DNA from: Paludibacteraceae bacterium
Lineage (GTDB): Bacteria; Bacteroidota; Bacteroidia; Bacteroidales; Paludibacteraceae
Assembly (NCBI GenBank): GCA_024399535.1
Contig: JAKSNU010000005.1
Span: forward strand, 1 to 46,192
Reading direction: 5' to 3'
DNA length: 46,192 nucleotides
The position numbers and the translations under genes are program-made. Under the pieces are notes generated by a model. It was given only the letters and a program-made list of their open reading frames with translations. It ran no database searches and was not told where the DNA came from. Every line of letters begins with the position of its first letter. Position 1 is the first letter of the stretch. Shown in pieces: positions 30,946 to 45,027 of this stretch.

Positions 30946-30983
30946 ATTGTTTTATGTTTTGTTTTGACGACATTAATGCGGCT

Positions 30984-30992
30984 GCAAAGTTA
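30984..30992 (-). promoter_or_regulatory. -7 box of the polysaccharide operon promoter
   Basis: The minus strand reads TAACTTTGC about 40-48 bases before the rfbB start, a perfect Bacteroidota -7 box. No strong -33 TTTG is seen. I see no upxY-like antiterminator gene or invertible repeat around it. Confidence 0.65.
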
Positions 30993-31027
30993 CAAATTAT
31001 TTCTGATATAAAATCATTTTTTAGGCA

Positions 31028-31057
31028 CAAAAAAAGCCGCACATTTCTGCACGGCTT
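31028..31057 (-). terminator. Terminator for minus-strand transcripts entering from the island
   Basis: The minus strand has AAGCCGTGC and GTGCGGCTT around a short AT loop, followed by a T-run (A-run on the plus strand). It lies just downstream of the aminotransferase remnant and upstream of the rfbB promoter, so it insulates the polysaccharide operon from the island. Confidence 0.75.
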
Positions 31058-31060
31058 AAC

Positions 31061-31088
31061 CTCTCAGCTCTAAGCTCTCAGCTCTAAA
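31061..31088. repeat. 14-base tandem repeat, two units
   Basis: CTCTCAGCTCTAAG is followed directly by CTCTCAGCTCTAAA and a partial third unit. It lies just beyond the 3' end of the aminotransferase remnant. Function unknown. Confidence 0.7.
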
Positions 31089-31095
31089 CTCAAAA

Positions 31096-31257
31096 CTACT
31101 CCATTGCTCTCTTGATGCACTCTACGATATATGCCACATCCTCATCGCTCACGCATGGACCCGAAGGAAGGCACATGCCCACTTTGAAGAGATCTGTTTC
31201 GACCTCGCAGGTATAGACATCAAAACCAGCATACACCGGCTGCTTGTGCATAGGTTT
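31096..31257 (-). pseudogene. 3' remnant of a DegT-family aminotransferase, copy B
   Basis: The last 53 codons of a DegT/DnrJ/EryC1 aminotransferase remain, starting at KPMHKQPVYAGFDVYT and ending with GMCLPSGPCVSDEDVAYIVECIKRAM. In intact members KPMH directly follows ARPLW; here the upstream part is replaced by 33 bases of the palindromic element (31258-31290) and unrelated sequence. The PLP lysine and most of the protein are missing, so it cannot be active. It is about 85 percent identical by eye at DNA level to the corresponding end at 43008-43172. The two copies flank a 12-kb accessory island. Confidence 0.85.
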
Positions 31258-31290
31258 AAGATGCTTCGCGGCTTTTCCTCCTCCTCGCTC
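31258..31290 (-). repeat. Palindromic element remnant, copy B
   Basis: 33 bases match positions 43173-43205 with two differences (31/33 by eye) and join the aminotransferase remnant at exactly the same codon (before KPMH). Only the gene-proximal end of the element remains, including GAGGAGGAGGAAAAG; the closing hairpin has two changed bases. Confidence 0.8.
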
Positions 31291-31324
31291 ATATGAGCCA
31301 GACACAGGTAAATTCTTTTGGAAC

Positions 31325-31351
31325 GAACCAGTCAAAATTTTTGACCAGTTC
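31325..31351. repeat. 27-base palindrome between antitoxin gene and aminotransferase remnant
   Basis: Two 13-base arms (GAACTGGTCAAAA / TTTTGACTGGTTC on the minus strand, with two G-T wobbles) surround a single A. It lies 33 bases beyond the antitoxin stop. It could end the toxin-antitoxin transcript, though no T-run follows, or be a protein-binding site. Confidence 0.6.
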
Positions 31352-31383
31352 CCGTAATGAGTACAATAAAATTTAAATGATTA

Positions 31384-31722
31384 TCACTTAGTCACAAAAG
31401 ATATCTCCTCGGCAACTATCGACAAATGTTCTTCCTTGGGCAAGGCATATCCCAGAGGGCAAGTTTGAATGATGGGGTGACCGAAGAAACTGGAAAGCAT
31501 AGCGAGCGTGCGTATCGTGAAGTTATGCTGTCCGCTGAGCCATTTTGTCACTTCACTCGGTTTCTTGCCCAAAGCATCAGCAAACTGCTTCTTTGTCAGT
31601 CCTTTTTCGCGCATAAGGGCATCTATCTCCTTGGCAATGGCAAAGGAAAGGTCAATCTCCATCGAGATATCCTGAGGCACGCTGGAGAGCATCTGCTGGA
31701 ACTTATCGTTTATCGTTTTCAT
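31384..31722 (-). CDS. XRE-type antitoxin (HigA-like)
   Basis: A 112-residue protein with a helix-turn-helix of the Cro/C1 type at about 37-80 (LMREKGLTKKQFADALGKKPSEVTKWLSGQHNFTIRTLAML). The flanks are helical. It lies 2 bases after the toxin-like gene, so the pair is co-transcribed with toxin first, the HigBA order. It should neutralise the toxin and repress their promoter at 32273. Confidence 0.82.
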   Translation of the reverse strand: MKTINDKFQQMLSSVPQDISMEIDLSFAIAKEIDALMREKGLTKKQFADALGKKPSEVTKWLSGQHNFTIRTLAMLSSFFGHPIIQTCPLGYALPKEEHLSIVAEEISFVTK

Positions 31723-31724
31723 CG

Positions 31725-32231
31725 CTATTCGTTGTTAGAAGTTTTGCTTTCCTTGTCTGAGGTATTCTGATTTTCACCCTTGATTTCTATGGTCTTCTCT
31801 GTGATGGTGACAAATCCCTTCTTTTGTCCCTCTTTAAGGAGTTTCTCAAAATTCTGAAGGGTTATGACATACCCCCTGAGACTATCATCCACATTGTAGG
31901 TGCGCGTGTTCTTCACCCCACCATTACCCAGGATAAGTATCTTGTCCGACAACCTGAGGCAATAGAGACGGAGTTTCGAGCTGACGACAGGAAGAGCCAC
32001 AACGTGATCCGACATCTTTCCTTCGGGACGGAACAAGCGTTCAAAAGCACCATCCTTTGCTATCTTGTTGATGAAAGCAACAATACGCATCAGATCCGGA
32101 TTATATACCGCATCATCCTTGAACTTGTTATAGAAACGCTCAAATTCAGTTTCATTCTCACCCTCGAACTGAAGAGTATAAATAGTACAGTTATCAGTTT
32201 CGTTTACAAGTACAAGATCTATTTCGCTCAT
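31725..32231 (-). CDS. Candidate HigB/RelE-superfamily toxin
   Basis: A 168-residue protein whose middle (VVSSKLRLYCLRLSDKILILGNGGVKNTRTYN, about 80-115) resembles the beta-sheet core of HigB/RelE mRNA interferases and related phage-derived proteins, with conserved Arg and Tyr. An acidic N-terminal part and a charged, disordered tail (GENQNTSDKESKTSNNE) frame it. It is longer than classical HigB (about 100). The assignment rests on this motif and on the adjacent XRE gene; enzymatic activity is inference. Confidence 0.62.
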   Translation of the reverse strand: MSEIDLVLVNETDNCTIYTLQFEGENETEFERFYNKFKDDAVYNPDLMRIVAFINKIAKDGAFERLFRPEGKMSDHVVALPVVSSKLRLYCLRLSDKILILGNGGVKNTRTYNVDDSLRGYVITLQNFEKLLKEGQKKGFVTITEKTIEIKGENQNTSDKESKTSNNE

Positions 32232-32272
32232 TGTGAAGTAATGCTTTTATTGGTTAATATTGAAATTCGGCT

Positions 32273-32281
32273 GCAAAGGTA
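32273..32281 (-). promoter_or_regulatory. -7 box of the toxin-antitoxin promoter
   Basis: The minus strand reads TACCTTTGC, 42-50 bases before the toxin start at 32231. The -33 region is AT-rich without a clear TTTG. The rest of 32282-32400 is AT-rich leader with no gene visible. Confidence 0.6.
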
Positions 32282-32403
32282 CAAATAATATTTCATTTAT
32301 AAGTAAAATACTAATCATTTTAACATTAATTTAACTTTTGAGCCTATGCGCCTTTAGATTAGATTGCCTGCACCGGAACAAATCCGGCACAAATGCCCGA
32401 AAC

Positions 32404-32433
32404 AAAAAAGGCCGTCCCCTTTCAGGAACAGCC
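32404..32433 (-). terminator. Terminator after the DUF6266-like gene
   Basis: On the minus strand GGCTGTTCC and GGGGACGGCC pair (two wobbles) around TGAAA and are followed by six T. It lies about 110 bases downstream of the stop at 32545. A related hairpin with the same CCCTTTCAGGAAC core occurs at 46003-46034. Confidence 0.8.
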
Positions 32434-32544
32434 CAATTCAAAAGTCGTACAGACGCATATCATTGGCGTATGTACGAAGTCTGAGGGTCGGAGGCGAGGG
32501 CGGGATTCCCTCATCCCTCACCTCTCATCCATCATCCTTCATCG

Positions 32545-33885
32545 TCAGAACGTCACTCCGCCGTCTTCGTTCTCAACGCCTCCGCCGGTGTCGCCTCCGC
32601 CTTCATCGCCGGAACCGCTGCCACCGCCAGGGTTTTCGTTTTCGTCATCGTTGCCTCCGCCTCCTTGAGGAGCGTCAGCGGCGAAGATTGCCTGCAGGCT
32701 CAAATCTCCGTTCACGGTCACAGTGCGGGTTGCAGAGGTGTTGTTGTCACTCCACTTCACGAAGTGGAAACCGCTTGCAGCCACAGCCTTCAGCGTTGCC
32801 GAAGCACCGGCATCATACTGACCGCCACCGGTCACAGTACCTGCCCCTGCAGGCGAAACGCTCAGCGAAACCATCTTCTTCACCACCGGATTATCTCCCT
32901 CACCGGAACCAGAGCCGCCAGTGCCCTCACCGTCACCAGAGCCAGAACCCGAGCCCGAGCCGCTTCCAGTCCCGCCGCCAGAAGTCCCGCTTCCCATCGG
33001 CTCCATACCGATGCTGAACTTCGACCCCGGCTTCAGATACACCGCACTCACATTCACGCCGCCATAGCTGTTCGCAGCACCCACCATAGCCTGCGCACTC
33101 TGATACGATGCCAGCAGAGCCGAATCCACATACATAAACTGCGTACTCACACGCACCGCCGAACCATTCGACACATCGTCACGCGAATGCACCCACACGG
33201 CAGCACCGCTCGCAATCGCACGGTCCATCGCCAGACAGCCGTCCACCACCGTGAACCCCAGCGCACTCACCACCTCCAGCAACGGAGTCGTATCGCCCGG
33301 ATTCAGCATCACCTTCGACCCGTAGATTCTCGCACGCGGAATCCCCGTCACAGCATCCGTCGCCTGCTCGCCATAGAAGAAAGTAATCTGGTCACCCTCC
33401 TCCCACTCAGCATTCATCGCCACAACCGCACACGCCAGATCCGCCACCGTGGTCTCCTCGCCAATCACCAGGCTCCCCACAGCAATGTCGCTCACCAGCA
33501 CGCCGCTCGCATCCTTGTGCATCGCCACACTCGGCAGCGTCCCCCTCGTAATCTGATACGGAGCCAGCACACTGCCGCCGTTCAGCCTCACGCTCTTGGG
33601 CACATACACCTTCACCACATTCATATTCGCCTGGACGAACGCATTGAAATCGCTCATCTTCCCGTTCAGCCCCTCAAAACCTCTCTTCAGAGTCTTGTTG
33701 AACTGACCATACACAGCAGCCAGATTCCCCAACTGCGTCCTCACCTGCATCTGCGCCTCACTTCTCTGCGGCACATTCGCCTTCACCGGTGCCTCATACA
33801 CCACCGTACCATACTTGGTCTGTCTGTAAATCAACTGACCCACCTTGCCGCTCAACTGAGAGGCAACACCATTCACTTTTGCCAT
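32545..33885 (-). CDS. DUF6266-like protein with InlB-type repeat and Gly/Ser linkers
   Basis: A 446-residue protein. The N-terminal 280 residues (GVASQLSGKVGQLIYRQTKYGTVVYE, then QRSEAQMQVRTQLGNLAAVYGQF) resemble the Bacteroidota DUF6266 family of unknown function. A long Gly/Ser/Glu linker (about 298-335) leads to one beta-grasp repeat of the InlB/Listeria-Bacteroides type (SLSVSPAGAGTVTGGGQYDAG...FVKWSDNN, about 340-405), then an acidic Gly-rich tail. There is no signal peptide. A perfect AGGAGGA lies 7 bases before the ATG. It is the last gene of the lysis-cassette operon. A role as a fibre-like or adhesive product is possible but unproven. Confidence 0.72.
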   Translation of the reverse strand: MAKVNGVASQLSGKVGQLIYRQTKYGTVVYEAPVKANVPQRSEAQMQVRTQLGNLAAVYGQFNKTLKRGFEGLNGKMSDFNAFVQANMNVVKVYVPKSVRLNGGSVLAPYQITRGTLPSVAMHKDASGVLVSDIAVGSLVIGEETTVADLACAVVAMNAEWEEGDQITFFYGEQATDAVTGIPRARIYGSKVMLNPGDTTPLLEVVSALGFTVVDGCLAMDRAIASGAAVWVHSRDDVSNGSAVRVSTQFMYVDSALLASYQSAQAMVGAANSYGGVNVSAVYLKPGSKFSIGMEPMGSGTSGGGTGSGSGSGSGSGDGEGTGGSGSGEGDNPVVKKMVSLSVSPAGAGTVTGGGQYDAGASATLKAVAASGFHFVKWSDNNTSATRTVTVNGDLSLQAIFAADAPQGGGGNDDENENPGGGSGSGDEGGGDTGGGVENEDGGVTF

Positions 33886-33892
33886 AATGCAA

Positions 33893-33899
33893 TCCTCCT
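33893..33899 (-). promoter_or_regulatory. Shine-Dalgarno site of the DUF6266-like gene
   Basis: AGGAGGA on the minus strand, 7 bases from the ATG. One of four identical sites in this operon; strong SD sites are unusual in Bacteroidota. Confidence 0.85.
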
Positions 33900-34401
33900 A
33901 AACTTTAAAAAAGTTAAATATTTTTATTACTATCAACAGTACTGTTATACTCACAATAATCCAGAACACCCTCTTCAACGCCTGCACCACAGGGGACGCC
34001 CGAGCGGTTCCTGAGCCTGCTGGAGAACCAGTAAACTCCTTCACCGAAGTCGAGTCACTCCGCTGCACATACACAGTATCCCGAACCACTCTCACCTTTT
34101 CTTTCTTCCGTCTTACATCTGACATCGAGCGTGCTCTGGTCCTATCAGTAACGGTACTCACCTTCACCGTGTCAGGCGGATCCAATGGGTCCTGAGCCTG
34201 TTTGAGGAGCACCGTCACCGTAGTCACCTCTTTCAATGTATCACGGAACTCTACCACAACCGAGTCCCTTGCTTCCGTGATTCTTTCTTCTGCCACACGC
34301 GATTCCACGCTCTCGCTAGTCGCCGTCCTGCTTACTGCGCAGCCCGTCAACCACAGGGCAGTTAGCCCTATGAGGGCAGGTGTCAATCTTTTGAATGGCA
34401 T
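33898..34401 (-). CDS. Lipoprotein of the lysis cassette (outer-spanin-like candidate)
   Basis: A 167-residue protein with a lipoprotein signal peptide (FKRLTPALIGLTALWLTGC, Cys21), a charged Ser/Thr/Arg/Val-rich middle (about 25-130) and a C-terminal hydrophobic segment (RVFWIIVSITVLLIVIKIFNFF). Its first 86 bases overlap the end of the preceding membrane/coiled-coil gene in another frame. This recalls the nested Rz/Rz1 spanin genes of phages, where the outer spanin is a lipoprotein. The C-terminal TM segment is not typical of Rz1, so the call is tentative. It ends 12 bases before the next ATG. Confidence 0.6.
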   Translation of the reverse strand: MPFKRLTPALIGLTALWLTGCAVSRTATSESVESRVAEERITEARDSVVVEFRDTLKEVTTVTVLLKQAQDPLDPPDTVKVSTVTDRTRARSMSDVRRKKEKVRVVRDTVYVQRSDSTSVKEFTGSPAGSGTARASPVVQALKRVFWIIVSITVLLIVIKIFNFFKV

Positions 34402-34639
34402 ACCTCAGTTCTGTGATTTCCTGGCGTAGTTCACCCACCTCGCGCTGCAAGGGTTCAGCTATGTAGGTGCGCCATTCGCTCACGTAATCCTTACTCAAGT
34501 TCATGTCTTTCTGCCGATTGTCGGCCATCAGACTCTCAATCTCCTGACGATGTTTACGGCGATCGAAGAACCACCCAAACCCGCCCAACAGAGTCATCAC
34601 TCCCAGGATGATTTCTGTCCAGTTAATACCTGTCACCAT
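34316..34639 (-). CDS. Membrane/coiled-coil protein (holin- or inner-spanin-like)
   Basis: A 107-residue protein with one N-terminal TM helix (WTEIILGVMTLLGGFGWFF) followed by a charged coiled coil (KHRQEIESLMADNRQKDMNLSKDYVSEW...LQREVGELRQEITELRYAIQKI). This is the layout of phage inner spanins (Rz) or of small holin-like proteins. The tail has CPHRANCPV, a possible metal or disulfide motif. AGGAGGA lies 7 bases before its start. It is placed between the endolysin-like gene and the lipoprotein gene. Confidence 0.6.
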   Translation of the reverse strand: MVTGINWTEIILGVMTLLGGFGWFFDRRKHRQEIESLMADNRQKDMNLSKDYVSEWRTYIAEPLQREVGELRQEITELRYAIQKIDTCPHRANCPVVDGLRSKQDGD

Positions 34640-34646
34640 GTTCTTA

Positions 34647-34653
34647 TCCTCCT
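34647..34653 (-). promoter_or_regulatory. Shine-Dalgarno site of the membrane/coiled-coil gene
   Basis: AGGAGGA on the minus strand, 7 bases from the ATG at 34639. Confidence 0.85.
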
Positions 34654-34659
34654 ATACAT

Positions 34660-35022
34660 TTATTTGTTAAACTTCATTTTCCGATTCACTCCGTTCCGTT
34701 TCCACGATACGTGAAGGAACGTTTCATAGTCTATCAACTGGTCGTAGCGGCCATTGTCGATAATAATCTGCTTGAGCCGTCGGATATCGTCGCAGCGTAT
34801 ATCTGCCGCCTCACCCTTAATGTGCTGGCTGTTGGCCGCGCCGCCCACTTCCGCATTATGCCTCGGGCAGCGGTAGCCGCTGTTGACCGACACCGGCCCG
34901 CCAAATGCTTGACGAGCTGGATCCAGTACATTATCCACCAAGGCCTCTATATTCGCCCTGACCAAAGGCGGGAGTCCGCCGCAACAACGGCAGCGGAACT
35001 CCTCAAATTTGAAATGTTTCAT
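34660..35022 (-). CDS. M15-type D-Ala-D-Ala peptidase, phage-endolysin-like
   Basis: A 120-residue zinc peptidase of the M15A group (VanY/DD-carboxypeptidase fold, as in small phage endolysins). It has VNSGYRCPRHNAEVGGAANSQH with metal His67, GEAADI with metal Asp74, and the last metal His104 in FLHVSW. The N-terminus (FRCRCCGGLPP) is typical of the phage versions. There is no signal peptide, so it would need a holin or spanin partner to reach peptidoglycan, and candidate partners follow directly. AGGAGGA precedes the ATG by 7 bases. Confidence 0.88.
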   Translation of the reverse strand: MKHFKFEEFRCRCCGGLPPLVRANIEALVDNVLDPARQAFGGPVSVNSGYRCPRHNAEVGGAANSQHIKGEAADIRCDDIRRLKQIIIDNGRYDQLIDYETFLHVSWKRNGVNRKMKFNK

Positions 35023-35029
35023 CTTTTCA

Positions 35030-35036
35030 TCCTCCT
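35030..35036 (-). promoter_or_regulatory. Shine-Dalgarno site of the M15 endolysin gene
   Basis: AGGAGGA on the minus strand, 7 bases from the ATG at 35022. Confidence 0.85.
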
Positions 35037-35070
35037 TTCACTCATATTAGAAGCGAAATTCCGCCCTCTT

Positions 35071-35247
35071 TTAGTCATCGGGACGGAACTTCTTCTCCTT
35101 TTCTGCCTTGACGCGTTTCTTCGTTTCAGCCAAATGTTGTTTCATTCTTACTCTGAATTCCTCCAGCGAGCTACCGGTCAATCGTTTATACTCGTCATTG
35201 CTCACCATGTTGGCCTCCAAGAGGAGGTATTTATCTAACAGGTTCAT
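35071..35247 (-). CDS. Small charged helical protein, 58 residues
   Basis: An intact 58-codon frame from ATG 35247 to TAA 35071. It begins MNLLDKYLLLEANMVSNDEYKRLTG, continues as a basic/acidic helix (SLEEFRVRMKQHLAETKKRVKAEKEKKF) and ends RPDD. It lies between the regulator-like gene and the endolysin gene on the same strand with 19- and 48-base gaps. I see no SD site before it. Function unknown; a small DNA- or protein-binding helix is possible. Confidence 0.6.
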   Translation of the reverse strand: MNLLDKYLLLEANMVSNDEYKRLTGSSLEEFRVRMKQHLAETKKRVKAEKEKKFRPDD

Positions 35248-35266
35248 AAGCTATATAATTTGGAAA

Positions 35267-35839
35267 CTATTCCTTTTTATTTTTATTGTTTTTTCTCTTT
35301 TCCAGGCGTCTTAACAGCTTGCGCTGTCGCTGGTACACTTGCCGCACCGGAATGTCCAGGGTTTCGGCTATCAGTTCGTAGTCGTCGCAGTAGCGCATGG
35401 CCTTCAAGTAGTCCAGCAGATCCTGGTCACCATCGGCGGCGCTTTCTGCAATTTCGTACACCACATCCATAAAGTCCACATCGTCGGTCAGATGGTTGGC
35501 CAGTCGTTCGTCTATCTCCACCATCTGCGGATGCTCGTCGCTGTTGTTCCAACTGTCCAAGTGGTGATGGATATCGCTCAGGGCAATCTTGATAAGCTGT
35601 GTATGCACGGCGCAGTGCGAGTTCCATTCCCATACGCCTGTGTACAGTTTATCAAATGCATCATACACGAAATGCTCAGCCGCGGGCATTCCGAAATTCT
35701 CTTCAGCCATCGCCGCTCCACAGTTCATCTTTGCCAGTTTCTTGGCAATGAATTTTACGGATACTTCCATCCCGAGTTCCCACTCGGGGTCTGTCACCAG
35801 CTCGCGGCTGGCATGTTGTTTCAATTTTACTTTCGTCAT
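35267..35839 (-). CDS. Putative regulator heading the lysis cassette (sigma-region-4-like C-terminus)
   Basis: A 190-residue cytoplasmic protein. The middle is helical with conserved His/Trp (YTGVWEWNSHCAVHTQLIKIALSDIHHHLDSWNN). The C-terminus (about 145-190: LLDYLKAMRYCDDYELIAETLDIPVRQVYQRQRKLLRRLEKR) looks like a helix-turn-helix of the sigma region 4 type, followed by a basic tail. No known family name. It is the first gene of the minus-strand lysis operon and has AGGAGGA 7 bases from its ATG, so it could be a late-gene regulator. That role is inference. Confidence 0.55.
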   Translation of the reverse strand: MTKVKLKQHASRELVTDPEWELGMEVSVKFIAKKLAKMNCGAAMAEENFGMPAAEHFVYDAFDKLYTGVWEWNSHCAVHTQLIKIALSDIHHHLDSWNNSDEHPQMVEIDERLANHLTDDVDFMDVVYEIAESAADGDQDLLDYLKAMRYCDDYELIAETLDIPVRQVYQRQRKLLRRLEKRKNNKNKKE

Positions 35840-35846
35840 AGGCAGG

Positions 35847-35853
35847 TCCTCCT
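35847..35853 (-). promoter_or_regulatory. Shine-Dalgarno site of the regulator-like gene
   Basis: AGGAGGA on the minus strand, 7 bases from the ATG at 35839. Confidence 0.85.
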
Positions 35854-35904
35854 ATAAATTTTTGATGTAAATAAAAATTCATTTTCATAAGCCAATCATT
35901 TTCG

Positions 35905-36061
35905 TTGTCCTTACACTTTTGTTTAAAGCGGGGGAAAAATGTTTTTAGTCATAGACCTCGATTTTTTGAAAAAAATGTGGCAGAGGTTTGTGGCCACCTG
36001 CCACACCATCGAGAACCTATTAGACTTCGTAGCCTTCCGATTACACTTTTATTGAAGCGGA
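35905..36061. repeat. Intergenic stretch with hairpin and a 22-base imperfect direct repeat
   Basis: No gene is supported here. TTACACTTTTGTTTAAAGCGGG (near 35911) recurs as TTACACTTTTATTGAAGCGGAG (near 36040), two units about 130 bases apart. Between them is a strong hairpin with arms TGTGGCAG (35976) and CTGCCACA (ending 36004). It lies upstream of the lysis operon, so it may hold its promoter or operator, or mark an insertion junction. Confidence 0.5.
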
Positions 36062-36090
36062 GCTTGCTGCCTTTTTGGTCACGGCGAACA

Positions 36091-36135
36091 AAAAAAGCGG
36101 CGAACACCAGAATTATCTTCCGACGTTCGCCGCTT
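36091..36135 (-). terminator. Terminator after the PHP-ATPase/small-protein operon
   Basis: Eleven-base perfect arms AAGCGGCGAAC (36095-36105) and GTTCGCCGCTT (36125-36135) with a 19-base loop; on the minus strand the stem is followed by a T-run. It lies 130 bases downstream of the small gene ending at 36266. Confidence 0.8.
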
Positions 36136-36154
36136 ATACTTATATACAATACAT

Positions 36155-36193
36155 CCCCGAGCAGCGAACATCAGCGTGTTCGTCGCCTCGGGG
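36155..36193. terminator. Second hairpin, possible terminator
   Basis: Arms CCCCGAG (36155-36161) and CTCGGGG (36187-36193) enclose an inner pair GCGAACA / TGTTCGT. The T-run is weak on both sides. It shares the GCGAACA core with the terminator at 36091. Confidence 0.5.
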
Positions 36194-36265
36194 GGTCTTT
36201 ATTCGTTATATGTAAATTGCAATCATTGAACTAATATCCTCTCTATTTTATTGATCACTACTACT

Positions 36266-36505
36266 TTAAAACAAACGTGGATTTCCATTCTCGTCTGTAT
36301 GTATTTTATTATAGATGGCCTTATTCAGACTCTCGATCTGCTCCTTTTCCTCCGGAGTCATATCCTCTGAAAACTCGCAATCCAATGTCTGACCATCCAG
36401 CAGGGCGCCAATCATTTTCACATACGAGAAATCCAGTTTCTCCTTGTCGTCAAGGATATAGGCGGCTATGTCGCCACCCTCAGTCTTTTGAAATTTAAGC
36501 TTCAT
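36266..36505 (-). CDS. Small protein, partner candidate of the PHP-ATPase
   Basis: A 79-residue acidic protein without TM or signal (MKLKFQKTEGGDIAAYILDD, LDFSYVKMIGALLDGQTLDCEFSEDMTPEEKEQIESLNKAIYNKI). A beta-hairpin followed by helices is likely. It starts 4 bases after the ATPase stop and shares its terminator, so the two are one operon. Function unknown; a regulatory or antitoxin-like subunit is inference from position. Confidence 0.7.
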   Translation of the reverse strand: MKLKFQKTEGGDIAAYILDDKEKLDFSYVKMIGALLDGQTLDCEFSEDMTPEEKEQIESLNKAIYNKIHTDENGNPRLF

Positions 36506-36509
36506 ATAC

Positions 36510-38822
36510 TTAGTTGTATTTCTTAAAGTTATACTTCTTTACACGTTTTTTAATGCTTGTCATGCCACCATCGGTCTGGTCAGCAATATAGTCCAGTACT
36601 TTCTGGCCAAATACATTCCCCTCCAGCGCAGCAGAACGGATGGTAATCTTATTGCCGTCGTTCTCACACACCACTATGGTCTGTGCGTCAGCCATCATCG
36701 GAATGGTGGCGTTGTGGCTTACCATAATCACCTGCTTGTTCCATTTCATATCCTTGATAGTTTCCGTCAGTGTGCTGTTAATGTACTTTACTGCAAGGTT
36801 ATCCTCAGGCTGGTCAATGATAATGGGTGCCGTATCTTTGGCATATCCAAGAATCAAGTCCAGCAGAATGGCAGTCTTCCATCCGGGGCTTAGGCTGTTG
36901 AAATCATTTCCATCCTTCGTCACTATCTTGTAAGTCTGCTTGTTCAAGTCCGCCAACTGCGTATATACCTTCTGACCAAGTTCTGTATATGAATCTATGT
37001 TCATATTGCCTTTGAAATACTCTTTCCGGAGTTTCCAAGGCGTAACATCTGCAATAGAACTAATGCCGGCATCAGCCTTCAGATAGTGTCTCAGCGCATC
37101 TATTAGCACATGACCGTCAAATTTGAAATTGTTGATGACGGACAACTTATGCCCTCTGGCCTCCACTTCCTTGGTTTTTAGGACAAAGTTCATTCCTATC
37201 AACTCCCGCTTACATTCCTTGAATTTGAGTTGTGCCTTAACATACGTGCTAATGGTCGTCAGCAGGTTCTCCTTGTTTGTAATGCGGTTCTGCTTTTGAC
37301 CCATTTCCTCTTTCAGGTTTATATCCACAGTCTGTTTGTGCTGCTTCACAATACCTGCCACCTCGTCAAACAATTCCCAAGCCTTGGCGGCCTGCGTCAG
37401 TTTCTTGATGATGGAAGCCACCTCATCGTTGGCGTCATCCACCAAGGGGTTATTTTCCAAGAAATTCCTAATCCGTTCTATGACCGCAAAATCTTTTTCT
37501 TGCTGCGTATCGGTATATTTCACAATGGCTATTTCCGCCTCCTTTGGTTGCAACAAATTGATGGCATTCTTCTTAAGCGGCTCTGTAACCACCAATTGTC
37601 CCGGGTTCGGTATTGCATTCAGTGTCAATTCGCAGTTTTCAATAGTCTCCACCTGCTGCATCATATCGCTGATAACCTCATTCAGTCTGTTCAGCGCTGC
37701 CGTAATGCTCTTGTTCAAGTCATCATCAGCTGGGAATATATTGTGCAGTATCTCAATCTTGTCTATGCTCTTCTCATTGTTATCGGAGATGTTTTCAGCA
37801 ATAAAGTTCTGCGAAATATAGTATGGTGCCATACCGCTGGGGTTCACTACGTTCATCTTGTCCACCCCATAACGAGCCACATATTTTGAACCCGTAAACT
37901 TGCCTTTGATGGCATTCACCACGGAGTCCACAAACAAGGTTTTTCCAGATGATGAACCACCAATCACCACATTCAAGCCCTCACTCAACTCCACGTCCAC
38001 ATCTATATGCTCATTCTGCAACTTAACGTGACCGATGTAGTCAGATTTCCTTACAGGCTTTTCGTTGCTATAAACCAGTCGGGTACTCTCCGATAAGGAC
38101 AACCTCAAGCCGTCAAACGTTGGTTCTGCAAACATCCAGGTGGGCACAAAATCATCATCTGGGTTTCCACTATGGGTCTTAGGATATTGACTGGGCACAT
38201 AATTGTCTGAACAAGTTACAAGATTAATAAAGGCTGCAATACCCAAACGCTCAAAGTATTCACGGGTCAATTCCACGCCTTTGGTACTTCTAGCAGTGAA
38301 GCCGTCAAACTGGTTGTAGTAGATACTCCTGTTGATGGCGTTGTCCAGATTAGCTCCTGGTCCTATGCTGTAGTTGAATGCACCATGTTGCTGTGATCCG
38401 TGCGGTAAGAGGATAAAATCATACTCATCGAAGTAGTTGATGGTTTTCTGTATACCTGGCGTGTTTGGATCATCCCTGTTGGGACATTTGTTCTCATAGA
38501 GTTTGTCCAGAATGGCGTTCAATTTATCTATTACATCCTCCTCAATGGGCACATTGAAGTAAATGTGACAGTGATAGGATTTCGCGTCTTCTTTGTTCTG
38601 AATATGCAGTTCTGCACCCAGAATCAGATTAATGCCCAGCCCCTTGGCTTTCATATACGCAGCCTTATTGATGGTGTTGTGATCGGTCAAAGAAATCATA
38701 AACGGAGAATCCCCGTTCAGTCGTTTTATCTGACTGACCAGTTCTGCCACATCGTAGTCTGCGTTCAAATGGTTCGCATCATTCGACGTATGAATGTGTA
38801 GGTCTATATATACTGGCTGCAT
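36510..38822 (-). CDS. PHP-domain phosphoesterase fused to SMC/ABC-type ATPase (TrlF-like)
   Basis: A 770-residue two-module protein. Residues 1 to about 240 are a PHP domain with its metal motifs intact: DLHIHTSND (H9, H11), SLTDHNT (D47, H48), GAELHI (E71), HCH (84-86), LPHG (H141) and TCSDN (D206). The rest is an ABC/RecN-like ATPase split by a coiled-coil: Walker A GGSSSGKT (288-295), YISQNFIAENI, a long helical middle, signature SLSPGWKTAILLDLIL, Walker B PIIIDQPEDNL and MVSHNA. It resembles the family called TrlF and other PHP-ATPases found in defence islands; the name is from memory. A further ATG lies 18 codons upstream, but 38822 begins the PHP strand. A good promoter lies at 38949-38980. 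Confidence 0.8.
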   Translation of the reverse strand: MQPVYIDLHIHTSNDANHLNADYDVAELVSQIKRLNGDSPFMISLTDHNTINKAAYMKAKGLGINLILGAELHIQNKEDAKSYHCHIYFNVPIEEDVIDKLNAILDKLYENKCPNRDDPNTPGIQKTINYFDEYDFILLPHGSQQHGAFNYSIGPGANLDNAINRSIYYNQFDGFTARSTKGVELTREYFERLGIAAFINLVTCSDNYVPSQYPKTHSGNPDDDFVPTWMFAEPTFDGLRLSLSESTRLVYSNEKPVRKSDYIGHVKLQNEHIDVDVELSEGLNVVIGGSSSGKTLFVDSVVNAIKGKFTGSKYVARYGVDKMNVVNPSGMAPYYISQNFIAENISDNNEKSIDKIEILHNIFPADDDLNKSITAALNRLNEVISDMMQQVETIENCELTLNAIPNPGQLVVTEPLKKNAINLLQPKEAEIAIVKYTDTQQEKDFAVIERIRNFLENNPLVDDANDEVASIIKKLTQAAKAWELFDEVAGIVKQHKQTVDINLKEEMGQKQNRITNKENLLTTISTYVKAQLKFKECKRELIGMNFVLKTKEVEARGHKLSVINNFKFDGHVLIDALRHYLKADAGISSIADVTPWKLRKEYFKGNMNIDSYTELGQKVYTQLADLNKQTYKIVTKDGNDFNSLSPGWKTAILLDLILGYAKDTAPIIIDQPEDNLAVKYINSTLTETIKDMKWNKQVIMVSHNATIPMMADAQTIVVCENDGNKITIRSAALEGNVFGQKVLDYIADQTDGGMTSIKKRVKKYNFKKYN

Positions 38823-38948
38823 ATTGAATGCTTTATCTCTTTTAAACAAAAAAGCCAAACAGAAGATGAATTCCATTAGGCTGATTAATTTTCTTTTTTT
38901 GTTAACTTACAGCTGAATGCCCTAATTGGTTAGTTTTATATTTCGGGT

Positions 38949-38980
38949 GCAAAGGTACGATATTATTTGGAACTAACAAA
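38949..38980 (-). promoter_or_regulatory. Promoter of the PHP-ATPase operon
   Basis: TTTG (38980-38977), exactly 19 bases, then TACCTTTGC (38957-38949) on the minus strand: a full match to the Bacteroidota -33/-7 pattern. Confidence 0.8.
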
Positions 38981-39035
38981 ATGATTTTGTAATTTTGTTG
39001 CGAAATTGGTGGAAAAGGCACTTATAATTTGGGGG

Positions 39036-39209
39036 AGGCTGTCCGAGAACTCAAAATCAAGCGAGAATTAAAGTATTTATTAGTACTTTGGTATTCTTAG
39101 AATATTTTCTATGTCGCTGTTATACAAGGTGTTACTTTGAATTGTCAATTGCTTGCTCATTCAGTACGCAAGGGCGGAAAGGCAAGCTTTTTGAGTTCTC
39201 GGACAGGCT
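39036..39209. mobile_element. MITE-like element, 174 bp
   Basis: Terminal inverted repeats of 21 bases (20/21 identical): left 39036-39056 begins AGGCTGTCCGAGAACTC, right 39189-39209 ends GAGTTCTCGGACAGGCT. GGGGG lies immediately outside both ends and may be a 5-base target duplication. The 130-base interior has no coding frame of note. It looks like a non-autonomous derivative of an insertion sequence. The rest of the 38877-39343 interval holds only the promoter at 38949 and the 3' flank of hamB. Confidence 0.8.
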
Positions 39210-39343
39210 GGGGGGCACTTTACTTTTAAAGGAAAGGAGCCGAGATAATCCCGAATGAAAACACCGCACCAAAACATAGAATAGACTTAATTCATCATCT
39301 GCAAACGTTCCCTTCGTTATTATCTAACAATCTCTGAAAATCG

Positions 39344-41680
39344 TCAACTATCATAACAAAGATCAATAATCATGTTGATCTTTCTAACATTACTCTTTTC
39401 AAATTCATCAAGAGCATTGAATGCTTGGTCTATCACCCATTGCTGTTCATTATTGTTCTCTATGGCATCATAATACTTAACAACTTTGAATGATGCACCA
39501 ATGTCGCTGGCTTTACGGCCAAGCATAGTGTCAGCACTGTATTCAAGTCTCAACAATAGGGCTTCTATTCCATTAACTTCCTCCGCATTACATCCTTTCG
39601 CTGCAGCCACGAAATTTTTATACACCATATTGAAAAGGCCAAAATACTTCACTACCTGGTATCGCAAAGTGTTAAACACAAATTCTGATGCTTTGCGCAC
39701 TCCGCTATCTACATCCATGCCTTTCCTGATGTAATAATTAACAGAGCCGGCGAAACCATTTGCCACAAATGCTCCTATCATGTCCACCAAATAACAATTC
39801 CCTCTATCGGGTGCACCATTTTCAACTAAAAACCTAAGTTTTTCATTTTTTACTATTGACTTGATACTGCGGCATATCAATTCTATACCTGCTTTCGTTG
39901 TTCTTTTCTGACCGACAAAGCGACTTATCAAATCCCTTATAATTGCATGCTCAGCATTCGAGAATCTGCTGATTGTGATGAACAAATACATTTTATCATC
40001 ATATGAAACAGTTTTAAAAGTATCAAAGCAAGCCTGTGGCATTAATCTTCTTGCCCGCATTTCATCAAGTCGGCGTTTTCTTTCAATCTGATCAGCAGTT
40101 AAGTATTGAGGTTCCATTATTAGAATATCAACATCTTCTTTATGCTCGTCTACCTCAAATTGCTTATGACGTAGGGGCTCGTCCTCAGACTCTATACATT
40201 TGCTAAAATCTTTATCTAATATAAACACCCGCCCTTGATAGTGTTTCATAAAGCGGCCTGCACGCCCTTCAATATTCTGAGCATCGAATTTTTTTAAGTC
40301 TTTTGTACCCTTCTTTCCTGAAAGTACAATCATGTTCTTTGCCGTTGTATTAACCCCCTCTGTGATAGTTGTCGTACAAATCAGCACTTTTAATACTCCT
40401 TCATTGAACAGGTTGATGATCTCTTGTTGTATATATTTGGGCACAAGACCATGATGCACGCCTACACCTTTTTTTAAGGCTTTGGTTACTATCCATTGTG
40501 CTCCTTTTCTATCAGCGAATAATCCTTCCAAATGGTTGGTAAGGTTACTTAGGCGCTCATCTTGAACTAATTGTAGTGCTTGAGGGGTTTCTATCAAAGT
40601 CTTTGCCCACTGTTCGGTTATAGCCTTTTGGCTACAATAAATGATAGCATTTTCATTTCTGTCCAGCAGCTGTTTCACAAGTTCGACTACTCTTTCCTTC
40701 TTTCCTGGGCCCGTAAACGTAAGACTGAAATCCTCTTCCACGTCGATAAGTTTCGCCGTTTTTATGGGGACCTCTATTTTACTTACAACATCGTATTTAT
40801 TGAAGTCCTCTATGTTGAACCCATATGAATTCAAAAATGTTTTGAATGAAGAACCTTGACCACCTTCTCCTTCTGGCAAAATGATGTATGGGCCTACTAA
40901 TAATGCATCCGCGGTATTGTTTCTCAACAATTCGTTAAGGGCCAAGCGGTAAGCAACATCCCTTTCGTTTTCCTTGGAGACATCATCAATTATGTACCCG
41001 TTATCTAACTTGTATACTTCATCCACAAATACAAAGTCTAGGTTAGCACCAACATTTTTATCCAAAAAGGATAAATATCTCTCGGGCGTATAGATAAATA
41101 TGTTGCGTTCACCTAGTGCCTGAACATCGCTTAATGTATGGATGGCATAATTCTCTTTTATCCAGGAATACTCTATGTCAGTATGTATTTTAAAAAGATT
41201 TTCAGACAACAGAGAAACTGTTGGGAATAGAAGTGCAATATTCTTATATCCCATTTTCCTAATAACCTCATATACAAGAAATGTCTTGCCAAATGAAGTT
41301 GTGGCAGACAAGAATATCCTATTTCTCTGGCCAATAATAAAACGATTTAATACTTCCCATTGATACAGATGTAACTCCGTGCCTTCCGTGATGTGCATCG
41401 AACTCTCGCGAACCATCATTGATAGCTCATCGAGAGTCACATCTATTTCACGTTCCTGGAAGTGTGGAACAAAGTTACCAAGCATTGTATAATATTGTGG
41501 GACCCCAGCATTTATGGCTAAATAACGCATAAAATGCAGATCTGCAGAAGAAAAACCATCCGCTTTCACATCATTAAAGAAATTACAAACCTCGTTCAAT
41601 AATTTAGGCGAGGGCTTTCCTTTCTGACGGCTATCATTGATAGTTTTTATCAAATGAGCGCTTCTTTCGTATCTATCCAT
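39344..41680 (-). CDS. hamB: Hachiman defence helicase HamB
   Basis: A 778-residue superfamily 2 helicase, the second component of the Hachiman anti-phage system. Motif I is SATTSFGKT (125-133), motif II is the DEVY box in FVFVDEVYKL (220-223), and motif VI is in NIEGRAGRFMKHYQGRVFIL (Ski2-like). The C-terminal third is helical and family-specific. HamB together with HamA forms a complex in which the helicase senses damaged or phage DNA and holds the HamA nuclease inactive until triggered (published family knowledge). It overlaps hamA by 31 bases, consistent with coupled expression. The start at 41680 is the only good one near the overlap. Confidence 0.85.
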   Translation of the reverse strand: MDRYERSAHLIKTINDSRQKGKPSPKLLNEVCNFFNDVKADGFSSADLHFMRYLAINAGVPQYYTMLGNFVPHFQEREIDVTLDELSMMVRESSMHITEGTELHLYQWEVLNRFIIGQRNRIFLSATTSFGKTFLVYEVIRKMGYKNIALLFPTVSLLSENLFKIHTDIEYSWIKENYAIHTLSDVQALGERNIFIYTPERYLSFLDKNVGANLDFVFVDEVYKLDNGYIIDDVSKENERDVAYRLALNELLRNNTADALLVGPYIILPEGEGGQGSSFKTFLNSYGFNIEDFNKYDVVSKIEVPIKTAKLIDVEEDFSLTFTGPGKKERVVELVKQLLDRNENAIIYCSQKAITEQWAKTLIETPQALQLVQDERLSNLTNHLEGLFADRKGAQWIVTKALKKGVGVHHGLVPKYIQQEIINLFNEGVLKVLICTTTITEGVNTTAKNMIVLSGKKGTKDLKKFDAQNIEGRAGRFMKHYQGRVFILDKDFSKCIESEDEPLRHKQFEVDEHKEDVDILIMEPQYLTADQIERKRRLDEMRARRLMPQACFDTFKTVSYDDKMYLFITISRFSNAEHAIIRDLISRFVGQKRTTKAGIELICRSIKSIVKNEKLRFLVENGAPDRGNCYLVDMIGAFVANGFAGSVNYYIRKGMDVDSGVRKASEFVFNTLRYQVVKYFGLFNMVYKNFVAAAKGCNAEEVNGIEALLLRLEYSADTMLGRKASDIGASFKVVKYYDAIENNNEQQWVIDQAFNALDEFEKSNVRKINMIIDLCYDS

Positions 41681-42543
41681 GATAACACTTGTGTTTTTAT
41701 TGCTTTTGAAGACTTAACGGGAAGTAGCATAAAAAACAATTTGGTGGGGATTGCAACATTATATGAAATAGTTGGGTATTCTCTGTTGATATACTCTACT
41801 ACCTCCTTAATAATGTTGTCATAAATCTGGCTTTTATCATCAAAAATAACCATCATTGGATACACTAATGTCATGTTATACTTCACAAGCTCATCTTTAA
41901 TGACAATACTTGGATTATCCAACCACGCGTTAATGATGTGGTCTATTTGGCTTTTTGGATTCACCTCCTTCACATGCTGAGAAATATCCAGGATATTTGC
42001 TTCTAAATAATCATCTGATAACGAAGTTCCGACCTTCTTTAAAATCTTTTTTACAGCCTCGATATAGCTTTGGTAAAACTTTACTTCCCCAAACCATAAT
42101 TCTACTGAGCCATTGCGTTCAACCATTTGGTAGGTGTCATATCCTGTTACCTCAGCAAGAGCTGTTGGTTGATAAAACCAGCCACGTGAAATAACCGTAT
42201 CGGCATTATGATAATACTGAAGGAACAGAAAGAGAAGCACCTCTCCATAAAAACCATATTTTAGCCTTATGTCTTCGGCTGCTGCTGCATTATACTTTAG
42301 TTTTGTTTTGAGAGCAATAATCTGAGCATCACTCAGCCTATCCAAATAGGAATCAAGGTTATCAAAAGAATACTCGACAATGCCATTGTAGATAACCTTT
42401 GCCAAATCTTGATTAGACGTTGATACACGATAGCACCCATCAGGTTCTGTTGAGATAGCCACCTTGGGTATAGCGCCATCTATGGGCAAGGTGTATTCCA
42501 AACCCACCACTTGTCTAATTAGGTCTTTTAATGTCTGTCTCAT
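41650..42543 (-). CDS. hamA: Hachiman defence nuclease HamA (DUF1837)
   Basis: A 297-residue protein. A PD-(D/E)xK-type nuclease core is visible: E101 in GFYGEVLLFLFLQ, D136 in EVTGYDTYQM, and E153/K155 in ELWFGEVKFYQS. The C-terminal region (about 210-290) is alpha/beta and rich in Ile/Tyr, as expected for DUF1837. HamA cuts DNA when released by the HamB helicase and causes abortive infection (family knowledge). It is 5' of hamB with a 31-base overlap, the standard Hachiman order. I did not find a clear promoter in the 140 bases upstream. Confidence 0.82.
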   Translation of the reverse strand: MRQTLKDLIRQVVGLEYTLPIDGAIPKVAISTEPDGCYRVSTSNQDLAKVIYNGIVEYSFDNLDSYLDRLSDAQIIALKTKLKYNAAAAEDIRLKYGFYGEVLLFLFLQYYHNADTVISRGWFYQPTALAEVTGYDTYQMVERNGSVELWFGEVKFYQSYIEAVKKILKKVGTSLSDDYLEANILDISQHVKEVNPKSQIDHIINAWLDNPSIVIKDELVKYNMTLVYPMMVIFDDKSQIYDNIIKEVVEYINREYPTISYNVAIPTKLFFMLLPVKSSKAIKTQVLSWIDTKEALI

Positions 42544-42684
42544 CAGATTATTGACTTTATTGATATTGATTCACTCTTTTATACTTCTCACTCAGTTACA
42601 TTACATCAACTCCTCAAACTTCGCTACTCTATCCTCTTTTAAGAGGCTCCGCCGCATACAACTTTCTATTATGCTACGCCTAAT

Positions 42685-42972
42685 TCAAATGCCACTCCTC
42701 TCCTCATTCCTATTATCTATCGCATATCGCACCGACATCATACACGAAGTCTTTCCCGCGCCACGGTCGCCGCAGAAAGCTATGATTCTTGAATTCCCCT
42801 GCCCAGGGAAGAACGTATCACCGTTCGGTATCTCTATCAGTCTTTTCAGGATGCCGAAGGCAGTAGTATATTGTGACGAGAAGAGCGACGTTTCGTAGTC
42901 TTTCTTTTCTATCACCACTCGGTCTTCGTCACACTCTACGAATACTATAGGTTTTTCGTTATTTGGTCGCAT
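42685..42972 (-). pseudogene. N-terminal fragment of a P-loop ATPase
   Basis: A 95-residue frame beginning MRPNNEKPIVFVECDEDRVV that contains a complete Walker A (FCGDRGAGKTS, 68-76) and then stops 20 residues later. A P-loop NTPase cannot end there, as Walker B is absent, so the gene is truncated; no continuation is visible in other frames before hamA. The full-length protein was probably a STAND- or AAA-type ATPase of a defence or surface-regulation system, which cannot be decided. The 42544-42684 stretch downstream has no gene. Confidence 0.72.
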
Positions 42973-43007
42973 ATAATTTACTTATTGTGTTATCGTTATC
43001 GTTGGCG

Positions 43008-43780
43008 TCAGCCCTCCATCGCCTTCTTGATGCACTCTACGATATACTCCACATCCTCGTCGCTCACGCAAGGGCCGGAAGGGAGGCACATGCCGACTTT
43101 GAAAAGGTCCACCTCCACATCGTTGGTATAGACCAGAGCATCGGCATACACCGGCTGCTTGTGCATAGGCTTAAGATGCTTCGCATCTTTTCCTCCTCCT
43201 CGCTCGGCAATGCTCAAGCAAGCTTGGCATTGCACTCACTCGTTCGTCGGTTCCACAAAGGCCTTGCTTCGGCACCGGCCTTGTCAAGATAGTCGCGAAG
43301 AGCCTCCACATTGGCGTTCGGCTCGCAATCGGTATGAGGATCCTTCACATCGTGCAAAACTCCAGCTGCACCGCCAACGGCACCCTCCACCGTCTTTTCG
43401 TACGCGTGCTCCTGCCCCACAACGTGCACCGAAGGATCAATGGTGATGGTATTCAGCCAATAGTTGCTCCCCTCGGCAGCCCAATCCGGCCCCTTGTGGA
43501 ACTCAATCCCCTGCACCTCCTCAAACGCCTTCTCATACAGCTGGGCGATATGCCTGTGATGGGCGATATGCGCATCAGCTACCGTCATCTGACCGATGCC
43601 GATTCCGGCACATACATTCGACATCCGGTAGTTATATCCTATCTTCACGTGCTGATAATAAGGATATTTCTCGCGATACTGGGTGGCATACCTCATAACC
43701 TCCTCCCATTCCTCTTTGCACGCTGTAATCAACGCACCACCGCCAGAAGTGGTAATCATCTTGTTGCCTATTCCGACCAT
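43008..43780 (-). pseudogene. Frameshifted, 5'-truncated DegT-family aminotransferase, copy C
   Basis: From about 43780 the protein begins at the PLP lysine motif GNKMITTSGGGALI, continues through NYRMSNVCAGIGIGQM and GSNYWLNTITID to AEARPLW, and then hits an 80-base insertion (43173-43252) that shifts the frame and brings in a stop. The last 54 codons (KPMHKQPVYADALVYTNDVEV...SDEDVEYIVECIKKAMEG) follow in another frame. About half of the gene 5' of the PLP lysine is missing; it abuts the stop of the 142-residue gene at 43803. It is therefore doubly broken. The C-terminal end is closely related to the remnant at 31096. Confidence 0.88.
43173..43252 (-). repeat. 80-bp palindromic element inserted in the aminotransferase, copy C
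   Basis: It separates the Trp codon of ARPLW from the Lys codon of KPMH, which are adjacent in intact proteins, so its limits are exact. It carries two hairpins: GCAATGC / GCATTGC flanking CAAGCTTGCTTGA, and AAGATGC / GCATCTT with a 3-base loop next to the gene. GAGGAGGAGGAAAAG lies between them. Similar elements are at 29694-29770 and 31258-31290. Confidence 0.85.
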
Positions 43781-43802
43781 TTTCCCGGTGCCGGTAAGAC
43801 GA

Positions 43803-44231
43803 TTAGAACAACTTCTTGATATTCTTCGGAACAACCGTACTGAGCTTCACACCCTTGGCCACAAGCTCCAGATCCGATTCTGTCAAGTCACCATCGAGCC
43901 TGCGAACCTTACCGTCCTTCAGCATCCGCGAGAACTCACCCAAACCGCAACGAATCACATTGTTACAGTTAAGGTACGTCAGTTCCTTCGTAAACTTATT
44001 CACGTCATCTTTCTTCAGCACAGGAAACGTATTCAAGTCCCATCCCCTCAACTGAGCCAGTCTGAAAGCAGTATCAATCTGCGAACTGCAGGTCGAAAAA
44101 ATCAACACCTCATCAGTTTTCTTGATGCACACATGCATATGGTCAGCTACACCAATAGGGCACTCCTCGGTGAAAAAATAGATATTCCCCTCACCCACCG
44201 AATCAGCCATCAACGCTACAGGCAAGTCCAT
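43803..44231 (-). CDS. Unassigned protein paired with Panacea antitoxin (candidate toxin)
   Basis: A 142-residue protein of unknown family. Its start (MDLPVALMADSVGEGNIYFFTEECPIGVADHMHVCIKKTDEVLIFSTCSS) is rich in beta-strands, with a pattern loosely like SH3-barrel toxins such as PemK/MazF-type proteins; LTYLNCNNVIRC and a helical C-terminus follow. It begins 3 bases after the Panacea-domain gene stop, and such antitoxins are paired with very diverse toxins. Function as a toxin is inference from position. The decayed aminotransferase begins right after its stop. Confidence 0.55.
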   Translation of the reverse strand: MDLPVALMADSVGEGNIYFFTEECPIGVADHMHVCIKKTDEVLIFSTCSSQIDTAFRLAQLRGWDLNTFPVLKKDDVNKFTKELTYLNCNNVIRCGLGEFSRMLKDGKVRRLDGDLTESDLELVAKGVKLSTVVPKNIKKLF

Positions 44232-44234
44232 ATC

Positions 44235-44816: not shown

Positions 44817-44845
44817 AAATACGTTTCCTTAAAAACTTTGCGACT

Positions 44846-44854
44846 GCAAAGTTA
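44846..44854 (-). promoter_or_regulatory. -7 box of the Panacea operon
   Basis: TAACTTTGC on the minus strand, 30-38 bases before the ATG. A short inverted pair GCAAAG / CTTTGC overlaps it and could be an operator. Confidence 0.6.
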
Positions 44855-44965
44855 CGACTTTTTTCGGACATGAACGGAAATTCTGCCGAAAAAATTTGGA
44901 AGAATAAAGATTATTTATTATAGGACCCGTCTCCATTAACAATTCTTAACCGATGCTCCAGTTTT

Positions 44966-44997: not shown

Positions 44998-45027
44998 AAG
45001 TCCTCCCTAATTCCCTAATTGTCCCCC

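What the first reader, a model, noticed from the sequence alone, without database searches (positions are those of the whole stretch)
36266..38822. PHP-ATPase plus a 79-residue partner: candidate two-gene defence system
A PHP phosphoesterase with a full set of metal ligands is fused to an SMC/ABC ATPase, in a promoter-terminator unit with one small acidic gene, next to Hachiman. The ATPase could sense DNA ends or structures and switch on the nuclease-like PHP domain, with the small protein as regulator. The partner appears not to have been characterised.
Basis: inference. Interest (0 to 1): 0.7.

Follow-up and report, generated by a model that had tools for sequence, protein, structure and literature searches.

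The report
Two-gene PHP-ATPase defence-like module
A bacterial gene for a metal-dependent cutting enzyme fused to a DNA-sensing type of ATPase was found, wherever it could be checked, with one tiny unnamed partner gene, sometimes beside known anti-virus systems, so it is probably a new two-part version of a known kind of phage defence.

Summary
Window 36510-38822 (-) encodes a 770-aa PHP-ATPase; 36266-36505 (-) encodes a 79-aa partner that reaches no family cut-off. In 16 of 17 members seen, the window included, a homologous 74-95-aa partner starts 26 nt before to 6 nt after the large gene's stop; the 17th is cut by a contig end. The 16 sit on one branch (100/100). None of 28 loci of distant TrlF/Ppl-type relatives matches the partner profile.

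Defence genes were identified near 7 of 17 loci: Hachiman, type I and II R-M, Septu, AbiJ-like, Mokosh-like.

One correction: PHP metal ligand 9 is Tyr in 17 of 17, so the set is not full.

Best reading: a two-subunit variant of Ppl/TrlF-type defence, the partner being a fixed gating subunit of a DNA-end-directed nuclease. Linkage is shown; defence is likely; nuclease activity and partner role are inferred.

The parts
36510..38822 (-). PHP-ATPase, 770 aa: PHP domain about 1-215 (H9, H11, D47-H48, E71, H84, H141, D206, Tyr208), Walker A 287-295, Q-loop 338, signature LSPG 644-647, Walker B IIIDQPED 667-674, H-loop 703, basic tail 750-770 (domain limits by eye from the alignments)
36266..36505 (-). 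small partner, 79 aa, net charge -7; starts 4 nt after the stop of the large gene
   Evidence: no family over its cut-off
38950..38980 (-). candidate Bacteroidota promoter TTTG-N19-TACCTTTG (consensus recalled, not from a call)
36095..36135 (-). terminator-like hairpin, 18 pairs and a T run, downstream of the partner
39344..41680 (-). hamB of the adjacent Hachiman system (context, not part of the pair)
41650..42543 (-). hamA of the adjacent Hachiman system (context)

Best explanation
The two genes are a fixed, translationally coupled two-subunit module of the Ppl/TrlF kind of phage defence. SHOWN: the large protein has PHP metallo-phosphoesterase motifs and a split ABC/SMC-type ATPase head; it belongs to one group of proteins in which each complete locus seen has the small partner; it lies beside known defence systems in several genomes. 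INFERRED: the ATPase head dimerises around nucleotide and samples DNA ends or replication intermediates. The Gln in place of the usual Walker B Glu suggests a slow switch rather than a motor. Productive binding lets a 3' end reach the PHP domain, which degrades it or nicks next to it. The small protein is bound co-translationally at about 1:1 and gates this, most likely as a fixed subunit that keeps the nuclease off until DNA or a fall in nucleotide displaces or repositions it. It may stand in for the roughly 50-170 residues that the ATPase insertion lacks compared with most TrlF/Ppl proteins. Ends made by neighbouring systems (type I R-M, Hachiman) could be substrates.
For: Partner in 16 of 17 members (the other is cut off), intergenic -26 to +6 nt. 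Partner identities track those of the ATPase over 15 pairs (Mantel r 0.94, 0 of 5000 permutations as high). In 395 genomes of the window's phylum the partner profile has two credible hits of four, both beside the ATPase. One branch, support 100/100. Kinship to TrlF (195 bits) and Ppl (C-terminal 75 bits). E. [quoted passage not shown] Defence genes identified near 7 of 17 loci. Shorter Walker A-Q-loop and Q-loop-signature stretches than in most of the wider family.
Against: No activity or phage data. PHP ligand 9 is lost in 17 of 17, so nuclease activity cannot be assumed; variant PHP sites are also frequent among the distant relatives. For 10 of 17 loci no defence neighbour was identified; not every neighbour was scanned, and one search lists only 25 of 77 families. 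One partner (L014) has net charge +3, against simple DNA mimicry. L030, without a partner, has an insertion as short as the core's (289 aa), against the 'replaces a lost segment' idea.
Confidence: 0.45

Rival explanations
1. Toxin-antitoxin type module: the PHP-ATPase is a toxic hydrolase of a host molecule (RNA, tRNA or nucleotides) and the small protein is its antitoxin; infection frees the toxin and the cell dies.
For: Small, mostly acidic partner fixed next to a potentially toxic hydrolase; the altered metal site (Tyr at ligand 9, invariant H73, H86, Q144, H146) allows a substrate other than DNA; another toxin-antitoxin-like gene (SocA/Panacea) lies in the window.
Against: The partner gene is downstream and matched no DNA-binding family over a cut-off; relatives of the Ppl/TrlF kind work or are annotated without such a partner.
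Confidence: 0.22
2. Accessory of the neighbouring restriction or Hachiman system: the pair processes DNA ends made by type I R-M, type II R-M or Hachiman and has no protection of its own.
For: In L002, L003 and L005 the ATPase gene starts 20 bp after hsdR on the same strand (HsdR, in L005 by sequence likeness and position); the window has Hachiman 521 bp upstream.
Against: The neighbouring system differs between loci and was not identified near 10 of 17; in the window the pair has its own candidate promoter and terminator.
Confidence: 0.15
3. DNA-repair or housekeeping SMC-like nuclease, not a defence system.
For: RecN/SMC/Rad50-like ATPase matches; around L006, L011 and L026 the neighbours look like housekeeping genes by eye.
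Against: Patchy: 1 of 358 genomes of the own family, 1 of 397 of G322's family, 2 of 395 of the phylum, yet spread over several phyla; the related Ppl is named anti-phage.
Confidence: 0.1
4. Anti-plasmid or anti-conjugation system rather than anti-phage, similar in use to SMC-like Wadjet or Lamassu.
For: SMC-like head with a putative nuclease; Wadjet and Lamassu act on plasmids, Lamassu also on phages (PMC10586767, passages).
Against: No specific evidence here; one Mob_Pre gene was identified beside the pair (L003), and mobility genes were not searched for in all loci.
Confidence: 0.08

Closest known systems
Ppl, anti-phage protein (NCBIfam NF042955, PADLOC PDLC02208)
   Same: N-terminal PHP plus split ABC/SMC ATPase with IIDQPED Walker B and a homologous C-terminal motif; [quoted passage not shown]
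   Different: 74.7 bits against a cut-off of 1000, C-terminal part only; Ppl is single-gene; a true Ppl (L037, 1137 bits) has His at ligand 9; the 15 aligned core proteins are 767-779 aa, L037 885
TrlF family AAA-like ATPase (NCBIfam NF045780)
   Same: best family match (195 bits); same domain order; R-M genes flank it in 2 of 4 plasmid loci looked at (not in 31, 32)
   Different: below the cut-off of 350; none of the 28 distant loci, most of them TrlF type, matches the partner profile; longer insertion in 20 of 22
Spaf_1101 family AAA-like ATPase (NF045781)
   Same: ATPase part, 92 bits
   Different: cut-off 475 not met
Lamassu (LmuB with small LmuC) and other SMC-like defence
   Same: SMC-like ATPase with a small companion in the operon (PMC10586767, passages)
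   Different: no LmuA or LmuC among the matches of the nine window proteins scanned; only a weak LmuB match over 38 residues; here the hydrolase is fused to the ATPase

Membership tests
Ppl (NF042955) | score at or above the curated cut-off (1000 bits) | tested here: not met
   74.7 bits, residues 631-762 only; L037 scores 1137 as positive control
Ppl (NF042955) | single-gene system | tested here: not met
   partner in 16 of 17 members, the other cut off
Ppl (NF042955) | ssDNA 3'-5' exonuclease activated by 3'-OH ends and NTP depletion | not testable with these tools
   needs biochemistry; the property is taken from PMC12904381
TrlF (NF045780) | score at or above the curated cut-off (350 bits) | tested here: not met
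   195.4 bits; 9 of 10 distant relatives scanned pass, one of them (L037) also passing the Ppl cut-off; L030 fails
Spaf_1101 (NF045781) | score at or above the curated cut-off (475 bits) | tested here: not met
   92.4 bits
PHP superfamily (PF02811) | nine metal ligands H H D/H H E H C/H D/N H (PMC3666897 Table 1) | tested here: not met
   1 H9, 2 H11, 4 H48, 5 E71, 6 H84, 7 H141, 8 D206 in 17 of 17; 3 tentatively D24 (16 of 17); 9 is Tyr208 in 17 of 17; assignment by motif order, not by structure
PHP superfamily (PF02811) | Pfam gathering score 26.4 bits | tested here: not met
   24.5 bits over residues 7-86, 25.6 in the genome search; just below
ABC/SMC-type ATPase | Walker A, Q-loop, signature, Walker B, H-loop in order | tested here: met
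   present in the 16 complete members
ABC/SMC-type ATPase | catalytic Glu after the Walker B Asp | tested here: inconclusive
   Gln671 in 16 of 16 with letters there; DQPE also in 22 of 22 distant relatives aligned, so a trait of the wider family
Hachiman (neighbour) | hamA and hamB together | tested here: met

The most novel reading that the evidence does not exclude
A separate class of PHP-ATPase immunity: a group whose PHP site has been rebuilt (Tyr for ligand 9, invariant H73/H86/Q144/H146) so that it acts on a substrate other than the DNA ends attacked by Ppl, with an obligatory small subunit of a new fold that is the actual infection sensor rather than a mere regulator.
Probability: 0.15. 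Interest if true: 0.78.

Novelty: new variant of a known kind. Interest (0 to 1): 0.55.

Why it matters
Ppl is described as a single-gene system (PMC12904381), and the TrlF-type loci looked at here show no comparable partner. A distinct group that, in each complete case seen, carries one small unannotated subunit gives a natural handle on how such enzymes are kept off in healthy cells. It also adds a small protein family that I could not match to Pfam, NCBIfam, PADLOC or PHROGs, which would let annotation tools find the system.

Tried and rejected
Filing it as TrlF, Ppl or Spaf_1101: rejected on curated cut-offs. Partner as a known family: nothing over a cut-off for P0002 in Pfam and NCBIfam, nothing in PADLOC, nothing convincing for 3 partners in PHROGs (best E=0.012), nothing in the PDB. 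For the 15 partners in Pfam and PADLOC no family is shared by more than 2. One of 15 matches Pfam GvpK at E=1e-6 (the output does not say which); as it is not shared I did not build on it. Stand-alone partners: two genome hits (E=9.6e-5 and 4.0e-4) lie in open frames of 479 and 366 aa and are taken as chance. Phage or plasmid carriage: no match covering 80% of the protein in 50,697 phage and 72,556 plasmid records at E<=1e-10; the 1 phage and 25 plasmid matches cover 11-16%, the C-terminal ATPase. With the window protein alone no relative in viral contigs. Window DNA 30900-46192 has no near match in phages or plasmids. dN/dS: synonymous sites saturated in 6 of the 10 comparisons, not used.

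Literature searches listed no paper on this two-gene form; titles and abstracts were seen as listings only. Papers opened: PMC12904381 (passages, section 5), PMC10586767, PMC5636811 and PMC3666897 (passages), PMC10952713 (term search, no occurrence). The review's sentence on Ppl carries no reference number, and I did not find the primary paper. The library holds open-licence papers only, so this does not show that nothing is in print.

Limits of the controls: one search was given 88 of 127 neighbour ORFs and lists 25 of 77 families. The sets are not matched, so no ratio is claimed.

Full report
OBSERVATION. Window 36510-38822 (-) encodes 770 aa (P0001), and 36266-36505 (-) encodes 79 aa (P0002). 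A longer frame starts at 38876, but the homologues start in line with the ATG at 38822. A terminator-like hairpin follows the partner (36135-36095). A TTTG-N19-TACCTTTG promoter-like site lies at 38980-38950 (consensus recalled). Hachiman hamB and hamA lie upstream on the same strand.

FAMILY. P0001's best curated family is TrlF (195 bits, cut-off 350), then Spaf_1101 (92, cut-off 475) and anti-phage Ppl (75, cut-off 1000, C-terminal part only). Pfam PHP scores 24.5 against a gathering score of 26.4. Among solved structures, sequence search gives only short Rad50 and AriA ATPase matches. A true Ppl (L037) has only a short SMC match there. P0002 reaches no family cut-off.

LINKAGE. A scan of species genomes with peptides of P0001 gave 15 relatives, of which 14 full-length ones are 42-74% identical to the window. 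Their records name Bacteroidota, Planctomycetes, Nitrospirae, Komeilibacteria, Parcubacteria and Erysipelotrichaceae; several are metagenome bins, so single assignments may be wrong. With the window that makes 17. In 16 of 17 a homologous partner of 74-95 aa follows at -26 to +6 nt; the 17th, L005, ends at a contig end behind a transposase-like frame (by eye). These are not 16 independent cases: L002/L003, L006/L008 and L007/L011 are close pairs. The partner's invariant positions over 15 rows are M1, K2, F5, Y28 and E53. Its identity matrix tracks that of the ATPase (15 pairs, Mantel r 0.94, 0 of 5000). In the same 395 genomes the partner profile gave 4 hits: the two beside the ATPase, and two weak ones inside long frames.

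GROUP. A profile of the core scores the 16 complete members at 1112 bits or more and the 28 distant relatives (24 viral contigs, 4 plasmids) at 121.5 bits or less; none of the 28 loci matches the partner profile at E below 0.8. Of 27 with sequence downstream, none has a 50-120-aa frame starting between -30 and +6 nt; four have one at +16 to +55 that does not match the profile. A tree of the 16 core proteins and 21 of the 28 distant ones puts the core on one side of a branch with support 100/100 (midpoint root and several long branches, so 'clade' assumes the root lies outside). The group is rare: 1 of 101 genomes near the window, 1 of 358 in the own family, 1 of 397 in G322's family, 2 of 395 in the phylum; the sets overlap. 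No protein of intermediate score was seen in the surveys, whose limits (1e-40, 1e-60) would have let one through. The seed scan used peptides of the window protein, which favours close relatives.

ACTIVE SITES. PHP domains that bind metal use nine ligands, H H D/H H E H C/H D/N H (PMC3666897, passages). By motif order, ligands 1, 2, 4, 5, 6, 7 and 8 are present in 17 of 17 and ligand 3 is probably D24 (16 of 17), but ligand 9 is Tyr208 in 17 of 17. Of 22 distant relatives aligned, 19 have His there, the true Ppl included; 3 do not, and 8 of 22 lack H48 and H141, so variant sites are common in the wider family. Further invariant residues in the core are H73, H86, Q144 and H146. Mtb DnaE1 D226, proposed to activate the attacking water (PMC5636811, passages), should correspond to D206 (inferred). 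In the ATPase, G(G/E)SSSGK(T/S), Q338, LSPG/LSAG, IIDQPED and H703 are conserved; the Glu that usually follows the Walker B Asp is Gln, as in 22 of 22 distant relatives aligned. The C-terminal DGGxxSIKKRxKKYN (one member has V for I) lines up with the EGGxxAFxxRxxKY of many distant relatives, so the basic tail is not an invention of this group.

SIZE. The core is short between Walker A and the Q-loop (43-44 aa against 48-87) and between the Q-loop and the signature (304-311 against 289-483, 20 of 22 at 357 or more) (8 core and 22 distant rows). The partner may fill that place; L030, short there and partner-less, speaks against it. A crude propensity profile suggests strand near the N-terminus and two helices for the partner, at low reliability. 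No structure was predicted.

DEFENCE CONTEXT. Window: Hachiman. L002: PDC-S02 nuclease, S subunit and HsdR, with the ATPase gene 20 bp after hsdR, and Septu PtuB and PtuA beyond the pair. L005: the same upstream order; its S subunit and PDC-S02 fit the two members counted, its HsdR was seen by sequence and position only. L003: HsdR 95% identical to that of L002 and a Mob_Pre gene after the pair. L013: type II restriction enzyme and methyltransferase. L007: AbiJ_NTD5 gene. L016: helicase resembling Mokosh MkoC, E=3.5e-36, about 3.3 kb away, the weakest case. That is 7 of 17 loci, on three separate branches of the tree (window/L002/L003/L005; L007; L013 with L016). In the other 10 I identified none; not every neighbour was scanned, some contigs are short, and one search was cut at 25 of 77 families. 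The sets are not matched, so no ratio is claimed.

MECHANISM. A review describes E. [quoted passage not shown] By kinship the pair most likely works alike, with the small protein as a fixed gating subunit. Shown: anatomy, linkage, grouping, context. Inferred: end sensing, PHP catalysis, gating. Not decided: whether the partner inhibits, activates or senses. Rivals are a toxin-antitoxin module, an accessory of the neighbouring system, a repair enzyme, and an anti-plasmid role.

VERDICT. Real and conserved; a new variant of a known kind. Interest 0.55: the partner is new to the family libraries searched and the group is well set apart, but the general idea (PHP-ATPase defence at DNA ends) is already known.

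Noticed in passing
window 31099-31290 and 43014-43205: Direct repeat of 192 bp (84% identical): 3' ends of broken DegT/DnrJ/EryC1 aminotransferase genes (two of three pieces score just under the Pfam cut-off) flank an 11.7-kb block that holds the PDC-M64-like pair, a cassette, the PHP-ATPase pair and Hachiman; the block may have entered or recombined there as an island.
   Followed up: partly
window 31384-32231 (-): Two-gene unit matching PADLOC candidate defence PDC-M64B (E=3e-47) and an HTH gene PDC-M64C (E=1e-24).
   Followed up: no
window 32545-35839 (-): GC-rich (53.5%) cassette: InlB B-repeat protein, holin- and spanin-like small genes (by eye), Peptidase M15, and a 190-aa gene without a Pfam match; looks phage-derived.
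   Followed up: no
window 42685-42972 (-): 95-aa frame with an ATPase-like N-terminus (AAA_23 E=0.02, PbeC E=0.002, both weak), perhaps a remnant of a further defence gene beyond hamA.
   Followed up: no
window 43803-44816 (-): SocA/Panacea-domain gene (E=8e-21) next to a 142-aa gene of no family: candidate toxin-antitoxin pair; an IS200-type transposase lies at 45129-45578.
   Followed up: no
window 39040 and 39195: Inverted 11-base words TGTCCGAGAAC / GTTCTCGGACA between the PHP-ATPase gene and hamB; possibly ends of a small mobile remnant.
   Followed up: no
L005:7634-7939: A transposase-like frame (by eye) overlaps the end of the PHP-ATPase frame at the contig end, so this copy appears interrupted.
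   Followed up: no
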